This document shows positions 244-6,268 of a DNA stretch of 6,268 nucleotides, one piece after another. Origin of the DNA: JALXCG01 sp026991065 [NCBI: Gemmatimonadota bacterium] (lineage in GTDB: Bacteria > GCA-2686955); contig JALXCG010000362.1 in the NCBI GenBank assembly GCA_026991065.1, positions 1 through 6,268 on the forward strand, written 5' to 3'. The position numbers and the translations under genes were made by a program. Position 1 is the stretch's first letter. Each line of letters opens with the position of its first letter. The notes under the pieces were generated by a model. The model ran no database searches. It saw only the letters and a program-made list of their open reading frames with translations, and was not told where the DNA came from.

Positions 244-852
244 TCAGTCCACCGGGCCGATCTCGGCCAACACTTCGTCCAACTCTGCCGCATCCAGCCC
301 CTTGGAGTTGGCGCGCAGTTCCGCTTCGAAGCTCTCGGCGTCGAGCGCGCACTCCGGCGACCACAACTCGGTGGCCACGCAGTGCGGATGAATGTTCACA
401 TTGGCGCGGCGCACCTGGCCAAAAACATCCACCTCGCGCGCCAGAATGACCCGCCACGAATCCTTGGCGATCAACTCACCGCACCGTTTGCATTTCGAGC
501 GACCAGTCTTGGCCCGCTCCGCCCAGGGCGGCGTGCGCCGCTCGCTCTTGCGCTTCTCGACGGCCGCGCGCAGTTTCTGCAACTCGGCCAAGGGCGGCAC
601 CTTCACGCCATCATCCCACGCCTGCTCGGCATAGGCCGCGGCCACATCATCGCTCTTGTGGGCGGCGGCGCATTTCAGGTGGTGCCACAGATAGCCGGTG
701 CCGTAGGGGCCCTCCAGGAGGATGCCCAGGCGCAACACGCCCTTGTCGATCTTGCGCCGGCAGGTGCGGCACTTGGAGCGCGAAGAGCGGGCGGCTTCGA
801 TCCGGTGGGGTGGCAACTCCGGTGTTTCGGGGGTGTCTGCGGTATCCTTCAT
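244..852 (-). CDS. Small protein with two PARP-type zinc fingers
   Basis: A predicted 202-residue soluble protein, stop TGA at 244-246. Finger 1 is C28-x2-C31-x26-H58-x2-C61; it keeps the W-x-H-x2-C end (W56) and the I-x-K-G-x-L-R-L-G stretch after the first cysteine pair that are typical of PARP fingers. Finger 2 is C121-x2-C124-x30-H155-x2-C158 and lacks the tryptophan. A charged helical linker separates them, and an acidic helical tail follows finger 2. There is no ADP-ribosyltransferase or ligase domain. In eukaryotic PARP1 and DNA ligase III such fingers bind DNA breaks; a role in DNA damage here is inference. Start: the ATG at 852 has AAGAAGAG nine bases upstream. Another ATG three codons earlier (861) abuts that motif and is less likely. 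It appears to be a single-gene transcription unit, about 250 bp beyond the response regulator. Fold confidence is high; function is unknown. Confidence 0.85.
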   Translation of the reverse strand: MKDTADTPETPELPPHRIEAARSSRSKCRTCRRKIDKGVLRLGILLEGPYGTGYLWHHLKCAAAHKSDDVAAAYAEQAWDDGVKVPPLAELQKLRAAVEKRKSERRTPPWAERAKTGRSKCKRCGELIAKDSWRVILAREVDVFGQVRRANVNIHPHCVATELWSPECALDAESFEAELRANSKGLDAAELDEVLAEIGPVD

Positions 853-861
853 CTGATTCAT

Positions 862-869
862 CTCTTCTT
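862..869 (-). promoter_or_regulatory. Ribosome binding site deciding the zinc-finger gene start
   Basis: The minus strand reads AAGAAGAG, a moderate purine-rich Shine-Dalgarno match. It lies nine bases before the ATG at 852 but directly touches the ATG at 861. Normal spacing therefore favours 852 as the start. Confidence 0.45.
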
Positions 870-907
870 GGGGGAGGTTGCGATTGGTCGGCCGGGAGCC
901 TGGCGCG

Positions 908-936
908 ATTCTAGCCGCGGATGGAGCGCCGATCCA
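908..936 (-). promoter_or_regulatory. Putative sigma70 promoter of the zinc-finger gene
   Basis: On the minus strand TGGATC (931-936, 3 of 6 against TTGACA) is followed after 17 bases by TAGAAT (908-913, 5 of 6 against TATAAT). Transcription would start near 901, giving a leader of about 50 bases. The strong -10 paired with a weak -35 fits a promoter that needs help from an activator, possibly at the adjoining palindrome. Confidence 0.4.
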
Positions 937-948
937 CTCTTGCAAGAG
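937..948. promoter_or_regulatory. 12-bp perfect palindrome beside the -35, possible operator
   Basis: CTCTTGCAAGAG reads the same on both strands. It directly abuts the upstream side of the proposed -35 of the zinc-finger gene, a usual place for an activator or repressor dimer. No regulator can be assigned to it. Confidence 0.35.
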
Positions 949-970
949 GCGCGCGTGATACTCTGGCCGC

Positions 971-1104
971 ATGCTGCTTGCCGCCCTCGTGGTCGCCGAG
1001 ACCCGTGCCTGGCCGAACCGTTTTGTTGCGCCGGGCCCGCGCAACCGCCGGCTGGGGCTGCCGCTCTACCATGCCGCCCAGCTCCTTTTCGGGCTGGCGA
1101 TCAC

Positions 1105-1111
<7 letters not shown>
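971..1111 (+). CDS. Doubtful 46-residue hydrophobic small ORF
   Basis: A plus-strand ATG-to-TGA frame of 46 residues has a hydrophobic start (MLLAALVVAE), a basic proline-rich middle, and a hydrophobic end (LLFGLAITY). Codon composition looks coding-like for a GC-rich genome: about 80% GC at third positions against about 48% at second positions. It converges on the response regulator, and its last bases overlap that gene's stop codon. Against it: there is no clear Shine-Dalgarno site, a stop lies only five codons upstream, and no family is recognisable. It could be a real small protein, the remnant of a decayed gene, or chance. Confidence 0.22.
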
Positions 1112-2471
<1,360 letters not shown>

Positions 2472-2475
<4 letters not shown>

Positions 2476-4415
2476 GCTGCATCTCCCAGCGGCAAAACAA
2501 TTGTCATCGTCGTCCCCGCGCCGCGTCGGCTCTCTACCTCTATGCGCCCGTGATGCGCTTCGACCACCTTCCAGGCGATCGCCAGCCCCAACCCCGTGCC
2601 CTCCGCGCGCGTGGTGTAGAAGGGGGCAAAGAGCTGCTGCTGGACCGCCTGGTCCATGCCGATGCCGGTGTCCCGAACGTGGAGCAGCGCTTCATTCGCG
2701 GCCGCTGACCGCTCCACGTCGATGGTGAGTATCCGCGAAGCGCTCTCGCTCATCGCTTCGATCGCGTTCAGGCAGAGGTTCAGCAGCACGCGACCAAGAC
2801 GCTCCGGATCGCCCAGGGTGGTCAATTGCGCATCACCGTCGATCCGCACCTCCACGCCGCGCTGCTCCGCCATGTCCGCCAGCAGCGCAACCGTGGCCCG
2901 CGCCAGCTCCAGCAGCGCGACCGGCACCCGCTCGCGGGCGGCGGTGCGCGAAAAGTCGAGCATCTCGCGCAGGAGCCTCTCCAGGTTGGCGATCTCCCGC
3001 AGCGCGATCTCCAGACGGCGCCCATCGTTGCCGCTCAAGCTCTGGCGCTGGGAGAGAATCTGCAGGCTCATCTTGATGGAGGAGAGAGGATTGCGAATCT
3101 CATGGGCGATCGCGGTGGTCATCTGCCCCAGGGCCGCCAGGCGCTTCGACTCTTCGAGCTGTCGCTCCAGCCGGCGGCGCTCGGTCACGCTCTTGGTGTA
3201 TTCGACGATTCCGATCACCTCCCCCTCTTCATCCGGGATCGGGTAGATGTGGTGCTCGTAGATCTCGCCGCTCACCGGATCCTGCTGCTCCATCCAACTG
3301 GCCCGGCCGCTCTCGAAGGTGGCCCGCGCGGGGCAGTCGTCGCACGGGTCACTGCGCCCAAAAAGCGCGCCGTAACAGGTCATGCCCACCAACTGGGTGC
3401 GCGTGCGACCGGTTTTTTGCGCCAGGGCGTGGTTGGCTTCGCCGATGCGCAACTGCCGATCCTGAATCGAGAGGAGGTCGGTGATCCCCTGAAACACTCC
3501 CTCGAAGCGCCGCCGCGCCTGATCCATCGTCTCCGCTTGCGCTTCCAGAGCGGTCTCCCGATCGCGAATCGCCCCCGCCATCTCGTTCACCGCGGTGGCC
3601 AGGGTGGCGAGTTCTCCGGCACCGCCGGCCGGCAGACGCTGCGCGTAATCCCCGCGCCCGATCCGCTCAATAACGCCCACCATCCGCTGCAGAGGCGCCA
3701 AAGCGACCACCACACCGGTCAGGAGCAGAAAGCCGATCAGAAGTGCCACCGCCCACAGCCCGCGGGCCGCGCGATTGGCGTGCACGTGCTCCTTTACCCC
3801 CGCCTCGATGCCGCGCTCGGCCAGACCATGAACCCGCTCCTGGAAGAGGTCGAGCGACGCCATCAGGCCATCAACCTCATGCTCGAACTGAGCCCGCGCC
3901 CGGCGCAACTCGGCGTCGCTCAGACGGTCGTTCATGAGCGCCGACTTGCCATTGTGGACGCACAAAGTACAGCGCGTCTGAATCTCTTCAAAGGTGGCCT
4001 TAAGTGATTTTATCGTATCCGCTTCCGCGGTTCCCAAAACGCTGGACTCGGCCCGATCCAGGCGTTTCTGGGCATTCCCGAGGACTCCTCCCAGCTCCGT
4101 GCCCAGCTTCTGGTAAGCGCTGATGTAGCGGGGGTGACGGTCATCCTCCAGATACTCGAGAAAAACCATCTTCTGCTGCACATGGAGTCGCCGCATCTCG
4201 TGCAGATCGCCGTACAGCCCCAAATAGACATCCGCCGCGGTCTGAAACTGCCGCTGCATCTCGGCCATGCGGTTCAGAGTCAGCAGCGACGCCGCGCCCA
4301 CGACCAGAAGCAGCGCCGCCATTCCGAGAATGATGCGGCCCGCGAGCGATTCGCGCGGAACCCGCAAGAGACGCCGCAACCGGCTTCCCCATGACTTTAC
4401 AACTCTTTGATTCAT
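2472..4415 (-). CDS. Membrane sensor histidine kinase (4-helix sensor, HAMP, PAS)
   Basis: A 647-residue inner-membrane kinase, the cognate partner of the overlapping regulator. Order: basic N-terminus; membrane helix ~26-47; periplasmic, mostly helical region ~48-217 resembling a four-helix bundle and carrying C149-x2-C152-x-H154; membrane helix ~219-239; HAMP ~240-290; PAS ~302-410 with C347-x10-C358-x2-C361-P; dimerisation helix with phospho-acceptor H438 in AHEIRNPLSS; and an ATPase domain with N546/N550, DTGIGM (582-587), LFAPFYTT (595-602) and GTGLGL (606-611). All catalytic boxes are intact. Start: ATG at 4415 is chosen because the promoter at 4447-4475 would begin transcription near 4440. 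In-frame ATGs at 4448 and 4514 would lie before that, and none of the three has a strong Shine-Dalgarno site. The cysteine motifs suggest metal, haem, Fe-S or redox sensing, but the signal is unknown. Confidence 0.95.
2483..2487 (-). promoter_or_regulatory. Ribosome binding site of the response regulator, inside the kinase gene
   Basis: GGGAG on the minus strand lies seven bases before the regulator ATG (2473-2475) and within the last codons of the kinase. It supports this start and coupling through the ATGA stop-start overlap. Confidence 0.7.
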
Positions 4416-4446
4416 AATTGGTTGCCGAGATTGTGAAGGAGTTCCC

Positions 4447-4475
4447 ATGGTAGGTTCGACGACCGCCGGCGTCAA
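4447..4475 (-). promoter_or_regulatory. Putative sigma70 promoter of the kinase-regulator operon
   Basis: The minus strand has TTGACG (4470-4475, 5 of 6 to consensus), a 17-base spacer, and TACCAT (4447-4452, 4 of 6). The predicted start near 4440 leaves a leader of about 25 bases before the ATG at 4415. The promoter lies about 90 bases from the opposing sigma54-type promoter, so the two would be divergent. Confidence 0.4.
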
Positions 4476-4563
4476 GCAACGCGGGCCGTCCCCGATCCAC
4501 CATCGAGGCCCCATCTGCGGCGTTGGCAGCGGGTCGAAGTGCCGGTGGTGGACACTTTTGAAA

Positions 4564-4580
4564 CTGGCACGAAATCTGCA
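4564..4580 (+). promoter_or_regulatory. Sigma54-type (-24/-12) promoter facing away from the kinase operon
   Basis: CTGGCACGAAATCTGCA matches the sigma54 consensus YTGGCACG-N4-TTGCW at every defined position except one (C for T at the start of the -12 element). The -24 GG (4566-4567) and -12 GC (4578-4579) have exactly the required spacing, and an A/T-rich stretch lies just upstream. Predicted start is near 4591 on the plus strand. No convincing protein gene lies downstream in that direction. The NtrC-type regulator encoded nearby is the natural candidate activator; no tandem dyad enhancer is obvious by eye in 4416-4560. Confidence 0.6.
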
Positions 4581-4598
4581 GCAGATGCAGGTTGCCCA

Positions 4599-4639
4599 CG
4601 CGGAACCCGATCGAGTCGGCCACTGGTCAGGATTCCGCG
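4599..4639 (+). repeat. Inverted repeat / stem-loop 1
   Basis: CGCGGAA (4599-4605) pairs perfectly with TTCCGCG (4633-4639). Inside the loop, CCGA (4607-4610) can pair with TCGG (4616-4619). It would form the 5' hairpin of the proposed RNA. Confidence 0.5.
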
Positions 4640-4661
4640 GACGCTCCCAGGCAAAAGTTTT

Positions 4662-4737
4662 GGGGGAGTGAGTTCGATTTCATCGTGAACCACGAAGGTA
4701 CGAGAAGGCAAACCGACCCCAGCGAACTCATTCCCCT
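4662..4737 (+). repeat. Inverted repeat / stem-loop 2, 15-bp arms
   Basis: Arms 4662-4676 and 4723-4737 pair over 15 positions, 13 Watson-Crick and two G-U on the plus strand. The 46-base loop holds a second hairpin, TCGTG-aac-CACGA (4683-4695). TGAGTTCGA from the left arm recurs directly at 4739-4747, so this short stretch has three copies of the same unit in two orientations. Confidence 0.6.
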
Positions 4738-4743
4738 CTGAGT

Positions 4744-4800
4744 TCGACCGTGTGCCGAGTGAGAGAGCCCCCGCTTCCGGGTGACTTGGACACGGTCCGA
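4744..4800 (+). repeat. Inverted repeat / stem-loop 3, long imperfect hairpin
   Basis: The outer helix pairs 4744-4753 with 4790-4800 over 10 bp, with one bulged C at 4798. After a bulged G at 4754 it continues as CCGAGT (4755-4760) with ACTTGG (4784-4789), including one plus-strand G-U pair. The apex can close as CCCG-CTTC-CGGG (4770-4781). Confidence 0.6.
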
Positions 4801-4801
4801 T

Positions 4802-4835
4802 GCGACGCCGGCCCCCCCTCCCTGGCCGGCGTCGC
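4802..4835. terminator. 12-bp perfect GC-rich hairpin, likely transcription end
   Basis: GCGACGCCGGCC (4802-4813) and GGCCGGCGTCGC (4824-4835) are perfect inverted copies around a 10-base loop. The hairpin lies 17 bases past the methyltransferase stop and at the end of the proposed plus-strand RNA, so it could serve both converging transcripts. Neither side has a T-tract, so it is not a standard intrinsic terminator. It may be a hairpin-only terminator or an RNA 3'-end stabiliser. Confidence 0.45.
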
Positions 4836-4852
4836 TACGTTCAGGTCAAGCG

Positions 4853-6268
4853 TCAGCGGTGCAGCGCGATCACGCACTCCACATGCGGTGTGTGGGGGAA
4901 GAGGTCCACCGGCTGAGCCTCTTCGGGTACGTAGCCGGCAGCGACCAGGAGAGCGAGGTCGCGCGCCAGAGTCGAGGGATTGCAGGAGACATGAACAATC
5001 CGCTGCGGCGCCAGCTCGATCAGGGACCGCAAGAACTTCGGGTGGTTGCCGGCGCGCGGCGGATCCAGAACCACCACATCCGGCCGGCCGTGGCGGCGCA
5101 CCGCGTTGGCCAATGTTCCGCGCACGTCGCCGGCGCTGAAAGCGGCATTGTGGATCTTGTTGCGCGCGGCATTCTGCCGGGCATTGGCGATCGCCGCCTC
5201 GCTCAGTTCCAACCCCACCACCTTGGCCGCCCGGCGGGCCAGAAAAAGCGCAATCGTGCCGGTCCCGCAGTAGAGATCGAAGAGCACTTTCCCCCGCAGA
5301 TCGCCGGCGCGTTTCTCCACTTCGCCGTAGAGCACCTCGGCCGCGCGCGTGTTGGGTTGAAAAAAGGCGCTCGGGGCGATCTCGAACTCCAGATCTCCCA
5401 GACGTTCCAGAATGTGCCCGCGGCCCTGCAGCAGATGAATCTCGTCCAGGATCACGGCGGAGGCGGGGCGGGGCGCGATGCCGTTGAGCAGGGAGTCGAC
5501 ATCGGGGAACTGCTTGCGAATCGCCTCCGCCCAGCCCGCGGCGATTTCGGCGTCGCGGTACGCGGTCACCAGATTGACCATGATCTCGCCACTGTGCCGG
5601 CCGGTGCGAATCACCAGGAAGCGCCAGTATCCCTGCCGCGAACGGGTGTCGTAGGCCGACACTCCGGAAGCGCGGGCAAACTCCCGGGTGGTCTCCAGAA
5701 CGGCGTTGGCGCGCGGATCCTGGATGTGGCACGACGCGATCTCGATCACCTTGTCGAAGACGCGCGGCACATGCAGACCCAGCGCCGCGCCGACCGCGCC
5801 GTCCACGCCACTGTTCAGCTCCTCCGGCCGCAGCCAGCGGCGCCGCGCGAACGAGAACTCCATCTTGTTGCGATAGTGCCAGACATCCGGAGAGGGCAGG
5901 CACGGCGCGACGGCCAGCTCCTCCAGGCCGCCGATGCGCTGCAGCGGGTCGCCCACCAGCGCTCGCTTCTGCTCCAACTGGGCGCTGTAGTCAAGCGTCT
6001 GAAAGGCGCAGCCCCCGCAACTGCCGAAATCCGCGCAGGGCGCCGCAACGCGTTGTGGCGAGGGCTCCAGCACCTCCAGCACACGGGCCTCGCCATGGCT
6101 GCTGCGCGAGCGCGTAACCATCGCGCGCACCCGATCACCGGGAACGCCCCCTTTCACAAAAACCACATATTTGCCGGCGCGCGCCACGGTCCGTCCCTTG
6201 TCGGCAATCATTCCCAGGACAAGCTCAATCTCTTCTCCCTTGCGCGGCCGCCGCTGGAGTTCTGTTTC
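4853..6268 (-). CDS. rlmD: 23S rRNA (uracil-C5)-methyltransferase, RlmD/RumA type, 5'-truncated by the window
   Basis: Partial: 471 residues are visible and the frame is open to the right edge. The first ATG in the window (6211) lies inside the TRAM RNA-binding domain, which already starts near visible residue 10, so the true start is probably only slightly beyond the edge. Numbering from the first visible codon: TRAM ~10-60; a 4Fe-4S cluster set C78-x5-C84-x2-C87 with the fourth ligand C180; FFQPN (302-306); SAM-binding FDLYCGTGTI (330-339); VLDPPRAG (400-407); catalytic C429 in SCNPSTLARDL; and the C-terminal catalytic base E464. All catalytic residues are present. It transfers methyl from S-adenosylmethionine to uracil C5 in 23S rRNA. 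TRAM plus Fe-S cysteines argue for RlmD (U1939) or a relative such as RlmC/RlmCD over TrmA; which uridine is modified cannot be read here. Confidence 0.93.
   Translation of the reverse strand, partial: ETELQRRPRKGEEIELVLGMIADKGRTVARAGKYVVFVKGGVPGDRVRAMVTRSRSSHGEARVLEVLEPSPQRVAAPCADFGSCGGCAFQTLDYSAQLEQKRALVGDPLQRIGGLEELAVAPCLPSPDVWHYRNKMEFSFARRRWLRPEELNSGVDGAVGAALGLHVPRVFDKVIEIASCHIQDPRANAVLETTREFARASGVSAYDTRSRQGYWRFLVIRTGRHSGEIMVNLVTAYRDAEIAAGWAEAIRKQFPDVDSLLNGIAPRPASAVILDEIHLLQGRGHILERLGDLEFEIAPSAFFQPNTRAAEVLYGEVEKRAGDLRGKVLFDLYCGTGTIALFLARRAAKVVGLELSEAAIANARQNAARNKIHNAAFSAGDVRGTLANAVRRHGRPDVVVLDPPRAGNHPKFLRSLIELAPQRIVHVSCNPSTLARDLALLVAAGYVPEEAQPVDLFPHTPHVECVIALHR

What the first reader, a model, noticed from the sequence alone, without database searches (positions are those of the whole stretch)
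4416..4835. Divergent sigma54 promoter beside a sigma54 two-component operon, driving no protein gene
Seen: a near-consensus -24/-12 element (one mismatch, exact spacing) points away from the kinase-regulator operon into about 260 bases with no convincing ORF. Known: NtrC-family regulators often control targets next to their own genes, and sigma54-dependent small RNAs such as GlmY/GlmZ, controlled by the GlrKR (QseEF) system, and Qrr, activated by LuxO, exist. Inferred: this pair may control a small RNA as its main local output, a compact sensor-regulator-RNA circuit.
Basis: partly seen in the sequence, partly recalled or inferred. Interest (0 to 1): 0.75.

Follow-up and report, generated by a model that had tools for sequence, protein, structure and literature searches.

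The report
Sigma54-driven structured RNA beside two-component pair
Beside the genes of a bacterial sensor and its partner regulator lies an RNA gene not matched in the public RNA library, heavily folded and behind its own sigma54-type switch, and kept in a related genus, so this pair probably works in part through an RNA.

Summary
Observation confirmed, inference strengthened. TGGCACGAAATCTGCA (4565-4580, +) points away from a kinase/sigma54-activator operon. The only other genome of the phylum held (G001; contig NYZA01000054.1, "Gemmatimonadetes bacterium isolate ARS67") has the orthologous operon with a divergent sigma54-like element of the same GG/GC spacing. Behind both lies the same RNA: a covariance model built from the window alone finds the G001 copy at 103 bits, E 2e-24. 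Of 50 comparable base pairs, 7 change on both sides and still pair, 9 change on one side (all G-U compatible on + only), 3 break. The blocks tested show no protein-like substitution pattern; no Rfam family reaches its threshold. Downstream neighbours differ between the genomes, so it is not a leader. The operon has its own conserved sigma70-like promoter. Predicted RNA: about 245 nt (4591-4835), ending in a hairpin with a conserved CCCUCCC loop. Hfq was found in neither genome (both about 84% complete). Not shown: a transcript, control by the adjacent regulator, targets, a clear terminator. The model matched 2 of 386 genomes, these two. The circuit type is known (CbrAB-CrcZ, QseEF-GlmY); the RNA itself appears new.

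The parts
1105..2475 (-). sigma54-dependent response regulator (receiver, AAA+ with GSFTGA, Fis-type HTH)
   Evidence: Pfam Response_reg, Sigma54_activat, HTH_8; 71% identical ortholog in G001
2472..4415 (-). sensor histidine kinase (helical sensor region with CTLC, HAMP, PAS with three Cys, HisKA, HATPase); start taken at the ATG 4413-4415, because the predicted promoter lies inside the longer ORF
   Evidence: Pfam; ortholog 57%; promoter
4447..4475 (-). sigma70-like promoter of the operon: TTGACG, 17 bases, TACCAT
   Evidence: only sigma70-like site found in 4400-4870; same place and spacing in G001, TTGACG-17-TACGAT
4490..4533 (-). truncated copy of a repeat dispersed in the own genome, between the two promoters
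   Evidence: 27 matches in the own genome, 0 in G001;
4548..4562 (+). conserved box GTGGACACTTTTGAA just upstream of -24; role unknown
   Evidence: at most 1 mismatch: once in each of the two genomes, here and at the same place in G001
4565..4580 (+). sigma54 -24/-12 element TGGCACGAAATCTGCA
   Evidence: G001 CGGCATGCGACTTGCC, same GG/GC spacing
4591..4835 (+). predicted RNA gene, about 245 nt; both ends are predictions
   Evidence: promoter position, conserved structure
4662..4737 (+). P1 domain: P1 4662-4676/4723-4737, P2 4678-4684/4697-4699+4702-4705, strand 4692-4717 with 25 of 26 bases identical in G001
   Evidence: 4 double changes in P1; A6 alignment
4746..4797 (+). second hairpin domain with GCCGAGUGAGAGAGCCCCCG (4754-4773), 19 of 20 bases identical in G001
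   Evidence: 2 double changes, 2 of its pairs broken in G001
4802..4835 (+). 3' hairpin, 12 bp, CCCUCCC (4816-4822) in the loop; possible terminator, but no U-run follows
   Evidence: no terminator-like site in 4400-4870
4853..6211 (-). convergent neighbour: tRNA/rRNA uracil-5-methyltransferase family; not part of the unit
   Evidence: Pfam; in G001 its counterpart lies several ORFs further away

Best explanation
A divergent regulatory unit. Leftwards a sigma70-like promoter makes the sensor kinase and its NtrC-type regulator. Rightwards a sigma54 promoter makes a non-coding RNA of about 245 nt (4591-4835, +) with three conserved hairpin domains. When the kinase senses its (unknown) signal, the phosphorylated regulator activates sigma54 RNA polymerase at this promoter and the RNA accumulates. 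The RNA most likely acts without Hfq, offering the CCCUCCC loop of its 3' hairpin to G-rich ribosome-binding regions of target mRNAs and blocking their translation; the near-invariant strands of the other two domains probably bind a protein or another RNA. Supported by comparison of two genomes: a conserved structured + strand RNA, the divergent sigma54-like element, the separate operon promoter. Inferred: transcription, activation by this regulator, the C-loop mechanism (about 40% likely) and the role of the invariant strands. The confidence given is for a sigma54-driven RNA controlled by the adjacent regulator, not for the C-loop step.
For: Model from the window's copy alone finds the G001 copy: 103 bits, E 2e-24. 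50 pairs: 7 double changes, 9 one-sided, 3 broken; random re-placement of the 28 substitutions breaks 8.45 pairs on average, minimum 4 in 20,000 trials; slid controls reach at most 2 double changes. All 9 one-sided changes pair on + only. Fold z-scores + -3.81 and -3.28, - -1.94 and -1.39. Element divergent to the orthologous operon in G001 with the same spacing. rpoN in 2 of 2 genomes. Upstream box once per genome, only here. No + strand gene downstream in either genome and different neighbours. Operon promoter conserved separately.
Against: Two sequences only; the structure came from the window and the alignment was fitted to it, while MAFFT alone sets the 3' arm of P1 one base off. Three pairs break, one of them in a way that pairs only on the minus strand. 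The G001 element has 3 departures from the consensus, and the motif is barely commoner than its reversed control. No distant enhancer-like site recognised. No U-run after the last hairpin in the window; in G001 the three terminator-like sites found lie at L009:1213-1236, not at the RNA's end. The 5' 67-77 nt are not conserved in shape. Weak Rfam likeness to C-rich-loop RNAs holds for the window's copy only. Missing Hfq is uncertain in genomes about 84% complete.
Confidence: 0.7

Rival explanations
1. The RNA is real and sigma54-driven, but another sigma54 activator controls it; the neighbouring pair has other targets.
For: The lineage uses sigma54 widely: sites with no mismatch stand before groES-like, dnaK-like and flagellar rod-like genes. 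No enhancer site of this regulator was recognised.
Against: Operon and RNA have stayed next to each other in both genomes while the other side of the RNA changed; the regulator's HTH is nearly identical in both. The TAAGTCRTTGA word seen upstream of other sigma54 sites is absent from the printed window sequence upstream of this one.
Confidence: 0.17
2. The RNA is real, but the sigma54-like element is a chance match and another promoter makes it.
For: Sites with at most 1 mismatch are little commoner than the reversed control (44 against 33; 39 against 37).
Against: Place, orientation and spacing are kept in G001; the scans found no sigma70-like promoter on the + strand of either region.
Confidence: 0.07
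3. The conserved structure works on the minus strand, as part of the operon's leader or of the neighbour's 3' end.
For: One broken pair would pair on the minus strand; the 3' hairpin is a near-palindrome and also matches the model on the minus strand (14.8 bits).
Against: 9 one-sided changes pair on + only, against that 1 on - only; weaker fold z-scores on -; the operon's sigma70-like promoter lies between the RNA and the kinase, and the convergent neighbours differ.
Confidence: 0.04
4. It is a short protein gene or a chance conservation of noncoding DNA.
For: Short ORFs exist in the stretch, as anywhere.
Against: No frame of the two blocks is enriched in synonymous changes; compensatory pattern.
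Confidence: 0.02

Closest known systems
CbrA-CbrB-CrcZ (Pseudomonas, Azotobacter)
   Same: A two-component pair with a sigma54 activator and, beside it, an RNA made from an RpoN-dependent promoter (PMC6292655 and PMC6296734, passages seen).
   Different: crcZ follows cbrB in the same direction (cbrB-crcZ co-transcript) and acts on Hfq-Crc; here the RNA is divergent, Hfq was not found and Rfam gives no CrcZ match.
QseE-QseF (GlrK-GlrR) and GlmY
   Same: Sigma54 activator of a two-component pair controlling an adjacent small RNA (PMC8745638, passages seen; PMC6075780, abstract start in listing).
   Different: glmY lies upstream of qseE in the same direction and was shown co-transcribed with it in Proteus; here the RNA is divergent and has no Rfam match to GlmY/GlmZ.
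C-rich-loop RNAs: sX13, RepG; Rfam 6C, CcsR1, ar14
   Same: C-rich loop in a stable hairpin. sX13 needs C-rich loops and G-rich motifs near start codons and not Hfq (PMC3771888, passages seen); RepG uses a C/U-rich terminator loop (PMC8295292, passages seen).
   Different: About 245 nt against 115 nt for sX13, one clear C-rich apical loop, and two further domains with near-invariant strands; Rfam scores far below gathering, none for G001.

Membership tests
RNA controlled by an adjacent sigma54 two-component pair (kind of CbrAB-CrcZ, QseEF-GlmY) | adjacent kinase and sigma54-activating response regulator | tested here: met
RNA controlled by an adjacent sigma54 two-component pair (kind of CbrAB-CrcZ, QseEF-GlmY) | -24/-12 promoter before the RNA, conserved, with rpoN in the genome | tested here: met
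   conserved in 1 of 1 relative, where it has 3 departures from the consensus
RNA controlled by an adjacent sigma54 two-component pair (kind of CbrAB-CrcZ, QseEF-GlmY) | conserved structured non-coding RNA | tested here: met
RNA controlled by an adjacent sigma54 two-component pair (kind of CbrAB-CrcZ, QseEF-GlmY) | regulator binds upstream and activates | not testable with these tools
   no distant enhancer-like site recognised
CrcZ and GlmY/GlmZ as RNA families | match to the Rfam model | tested here: not met
sX13, 6C, CcsR1 (C-rich-loop RNAs) | Rfam gathering score | tested here: not met
   6C 28.5 of 47 bits, sX13 21.6 of 50, CcsR1 15.8 of 65.3; none for G001
sX13, 6C, CcsR1 (C-rich-loop RNAs) | C-rich apical loop that pairs with G-rich mRNA motifs | tested here: inconclusive
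   one CCCUCCC loop conserved in both genomes; pairing with targets not tested

The most novel reading that the evidence does not exclude
The RNA founds a new class of large structured regulatory RNA. Two inner strands are 25-of-26 and 19-of-20 identical while the helices around them drift by compensation, a pattern expected of a specific binding site for a protein or small molecule rather than of a plain antisense RNA. A two-component pair in a lineage without detectable Hfq would then make an RNA that itself binds or senses something, with a C-rich arm as effector.
Probability: 0.25. Interest if true: 0.78.

Novelty: new variant of a known kind. Interest (0 to 1): 0.6.

Why it matters
From two genomes and no expression data it shows a compact sensor-regulator-RNA unit in a little-sampled uncultured lineage where Hfq was not found. 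It gives exact things to test: a start at 4591, three hairpin domains, two near-invariant strands and one C-rich loop. If confirmed, the arrangement known from CbrAB-CrcZ and QseEF-GlmY exists with an unrelated RNA outside the proteobacteria, and an 'empty' stretch behind a regulator's divergent promoter is worth folding.

Tried and rejected
Small protein gene: disfavoured by codon changes in the two ungapped blocks of 30 or more columns, 6 frames each; the rest of the alignment and the 5' part were not covered. Known RNA family: nothing at gathering score; permissive searches gave only sub-threshold matches. tRNA/tmRNA: 0. Leader of a + strand gene: none follows in the window or in the 14 kb of G001 read; the long + strand ORFs there lie opposite minus-strand genes (judged by eye). 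GGCGTCAAG as an enhancer site: dropped, it holds the -35 of the operon promoter in both genomes. Repeat 4490-4533 as an enhancer: dropped, a truncated dispersed repeat absent from G001.

More members: the pattern scan of genome contigs gave 4 stretches, one of them the G001 contig; viral contigs gave 4. The 7 others show no RNA: contexts, no match with model R1 at E up to 1. That call searched 35 loci and found only the G001 contig again and a 38-nt hairpin at E 0.076. Second motif in viral contigs: 0. R2 matched 2 of 386 genomes (stricter filters) and 0 of 3 in the phylum of G215 (whose answer warns that an empty result shows nothing). The DNA search of 21 genomes also gave G014, 84% over 37 bases around the promoter, E 3.4e-4; on reading it I took it as chance. 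Kinase search at E 1e-50: 19 of 386 genomes, at most 3 candidates scored per genome; the 17 besides G000 and G001 match only from residue 215 on.

What the kinase senses: model of mean pLDDT 67.2 from 2 sequences; Foldseek 0 matches at E 0.001, best NarQ at 0.0089; left open. Literature: ARS67 gave 1 unrelated paper; sigma54 with structured or small RNA gave 2 and 1 papers seen only as listings; a broad search was uninformative. So 'not in print' rests on these few searches and on Rfam.

Full report
What was claimed.

The promoter. TGGCACGAAATCTGCA at 4565-4580 (+) has one mismatch to TGGCACGNNNNTTGCW; the 11 other sites found in the window have two or three. Alone it is weak: sites with at most one mismatch number 44 in the own genome against 33 for the reversed pattern, and 39 against 37 in G001. 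Sigma54 is present: rpoN in 2 of 2 genomes. Of the loci read (30 of the 83 sites), sites with no mismatch precede a groES-like gene in both genomes and a dnaK-like gene in the own one. The same exported-looking protein (272 of 470 aligned residues identical) has such a site in G001 and, in the own genome, the very 16-mer of this window. So the motif is in use in this lineage.

The relative. The window is a whole contig of an assembly 83.8% complete. One other genome of its phylum is held, G001, of the same family and another genus. Its contig has the length and position of NYZA01000054.1, titled 'Gemmatimonadetes bacterium isolate ARS67'. G001 has the kinase (57%) and the regulator (71%) as orthologs. 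Divergent to them lies CGGCATGCGACTTGCC, with GG and GC at the same spacing but 3 departures from the consensus. It is preceded by GTGGACACTTTCGAA where the window has GTGGACACTTTTGAA. That box, with at most one mismatch, occurs once in each of the two genomes, at these places. In 500 mononucleotide shuffles of the window's region the longest shared word reached the observed 11 bases twice.

The operon has its own promoter. The only sigma70-like site found in each region is on the minus strand: TTGACG-17-TACCAT (4475-4447) and, in G001, TTGACG-17-TACGAT. So the unit is divergent, sigma70-like to the left and sigma54 to the right. In the window a truncated dispersed repeat (4490-4533) lies between the two.

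The RNA. A DNA search of 21 genomes matched G001 over 4675-4829 at 71%; a third genome, G014, gave a 37-base match that I read as chance. The kinase gene itself is 63% identical in DNA. A covariance model of the window's copy alone finds the G001 copy at 103 bits, E 2e-24. On the two-row alignment 50 pairs have letters on both sides in both rows: 31 unchanged, 7 changed on both sides and paired, 9 changed on one side and paired, 3 broken. The structure slid by 1-3 columns has at most 2 double changes, against 7. Re-placing the 28 substitutions of paired columns at random, letter for letter, breaks 8.45 pairs on average and never fewer than 4 in 20,000 trials; 7 or more double changes occur in 0.4%. 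Limits: two sequences; structure taken from the window; alignment fitted to it, while MAFFT alone sets the 3' arm of P1 one base off. RNAalifold on the joined alignment, given no structure, recovers P1, P2, the second domain and the 3' hairpin.

The strand. All 9 one-sided changes pair on the + strand only; one of the 3 broken pairs would pair on the minus strand only. Fold z-scores: + -3.81 and -3.28, - -1.94 and -1.39.

Not a protein, not a leader, not a listed family. In the two ungapped blocks no frame has more synonymous than non-synonymous changed codons. No + strand gene follows in the window or in the G001 stretch read, where the next genes are on the minus strand and differ; the methyltransferase counterpart there lies three ORFs further on (gene calls in G001 by eye). 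Rfam gives nothing at gathering score. With permissive settings the window's copy resembles 6C, sX13, CcsR1 and ar14 (and a plant microRNA family on the other strand), all far below threshold, and the G001 copy nothing.

Anatomy. The predicted +1 is a G in both. The first 67-77 nt are not conserved in shape; folded alone they close with a short helix from base 1 or 2 in both genomes, but the full-length G001 fold does not keep it. Then come the P1 domain with helix P2 and the strand ACGAAGGUANGAGAAGGCAAACCGAC (25 of 26 identical); a second domain with GCCGAGYGAGAGAGCCCCCG (19 of 20); and a 12-bp hairpin with CCCUCCC in its loop. No U-run follows it (in G001 the terminator-like sites lie elsewhere), so the 3' end is a guess.

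How it probably works. Signal, kinase, phosphorylated regulator, sigma54 promoter, RNA: inferred from gene types and position. For the RNA's action the best lead is the C-rich loop. sX13 represses mRNAs with G-rich motifs near start codons through C-rich loops and without Hfq (PMC3771888, passages). RepG pairs a C/U-rich terminator loop with a G-repeat (PMC8295292, passages). Hfq was found in 0 of 2 genomes while the same search rang in 5 of 14 control genomes, which fits, but both assemblies are about 84% complete. The near-invariant strands suggest a further partner; nothing here identifies it.

Known or new. RNAs beside sigma54 two-component genes are known: CbrAB-CrcZ (PMC6292655, PMC6296734, passages) and QseEF-GlmY (PMC8745638, passages). 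There the RNA runs in the direction of the pair; here it is divergent and unrelated by Rfam. Its known range is narrow: 2 of 386 genomes (stricter filters), 0 of 3 in one other phylum, and no other member in the pattern scans (which see exact matches only).

Verdict. Observation confirmed, guess supported, and the missing piece, a conserved RNA, found. My estimates: structured + strand RNA 0.93; sigma54-driven and controlled by the adjacent regulator 0.7; C-loop mechanism about 0.4.

Noticed in passing
L056/L088 (G000:C81), L062 (G000:C324), L059 (G001:C120): Sigma54 sites with no mismatch lie before an Hsp70 (dnaK-like) gene in the own genome and before groES-like genes in both (Pfam HSP70 and Cpn10 for the own ones; the 24-residue G001 start was too short for Pfam): sigma54 may drive chaperones in this lineage.
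   Followed up: partly
L062, L059, L085, upstream of the sigma54 sites: A word TAAGTCRTTGA recurs upstream of both groES sites and of the own exported-protein site, a possible enhancer of another sigma54 activator; it is not seen at the G001 exported-protein site L061.
   Followed up: no
L085 (G000:C590) and L061 (G001:C125): An exported-looking protein (272 of 470 aligned residues identical between the genomes, no Pfam family for its first 150 residues) has a sigma54-like site upstream in both; in the own genome it is the same 16-mer as at the RNA.
   Followed up: partly
window 4490-4533; L002-L008; G000:C503:11653-11829: A dispersed repeat of up to about 160-180 bp: 27 matches in the own genome, none in G001, no Rfam match in the 7 loci searched.
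   Followed up: partly
window 3438-4412 (-): The kinase's sensor region is predicted all-helical (mean pLDDT 67.2) with a conserved CTLC motif and only weak likeness to NarQ (best E 0.0089); it was not matched outside the two genomes at E 1e-50.
   Followed up: partly
window 4574-4586: A perfect dyad ATCTGC-A-GCAGAT overlaps the -12 element in the window; it was not among the dyads listed for G001.
   Followed up: no
window 244-1044 (-): A bacterial ORF with two stretches matching the PARP-type zinc finger (zf-PARP, E 9.7e-19) lies beside the regulator gene.
   Followed up: no
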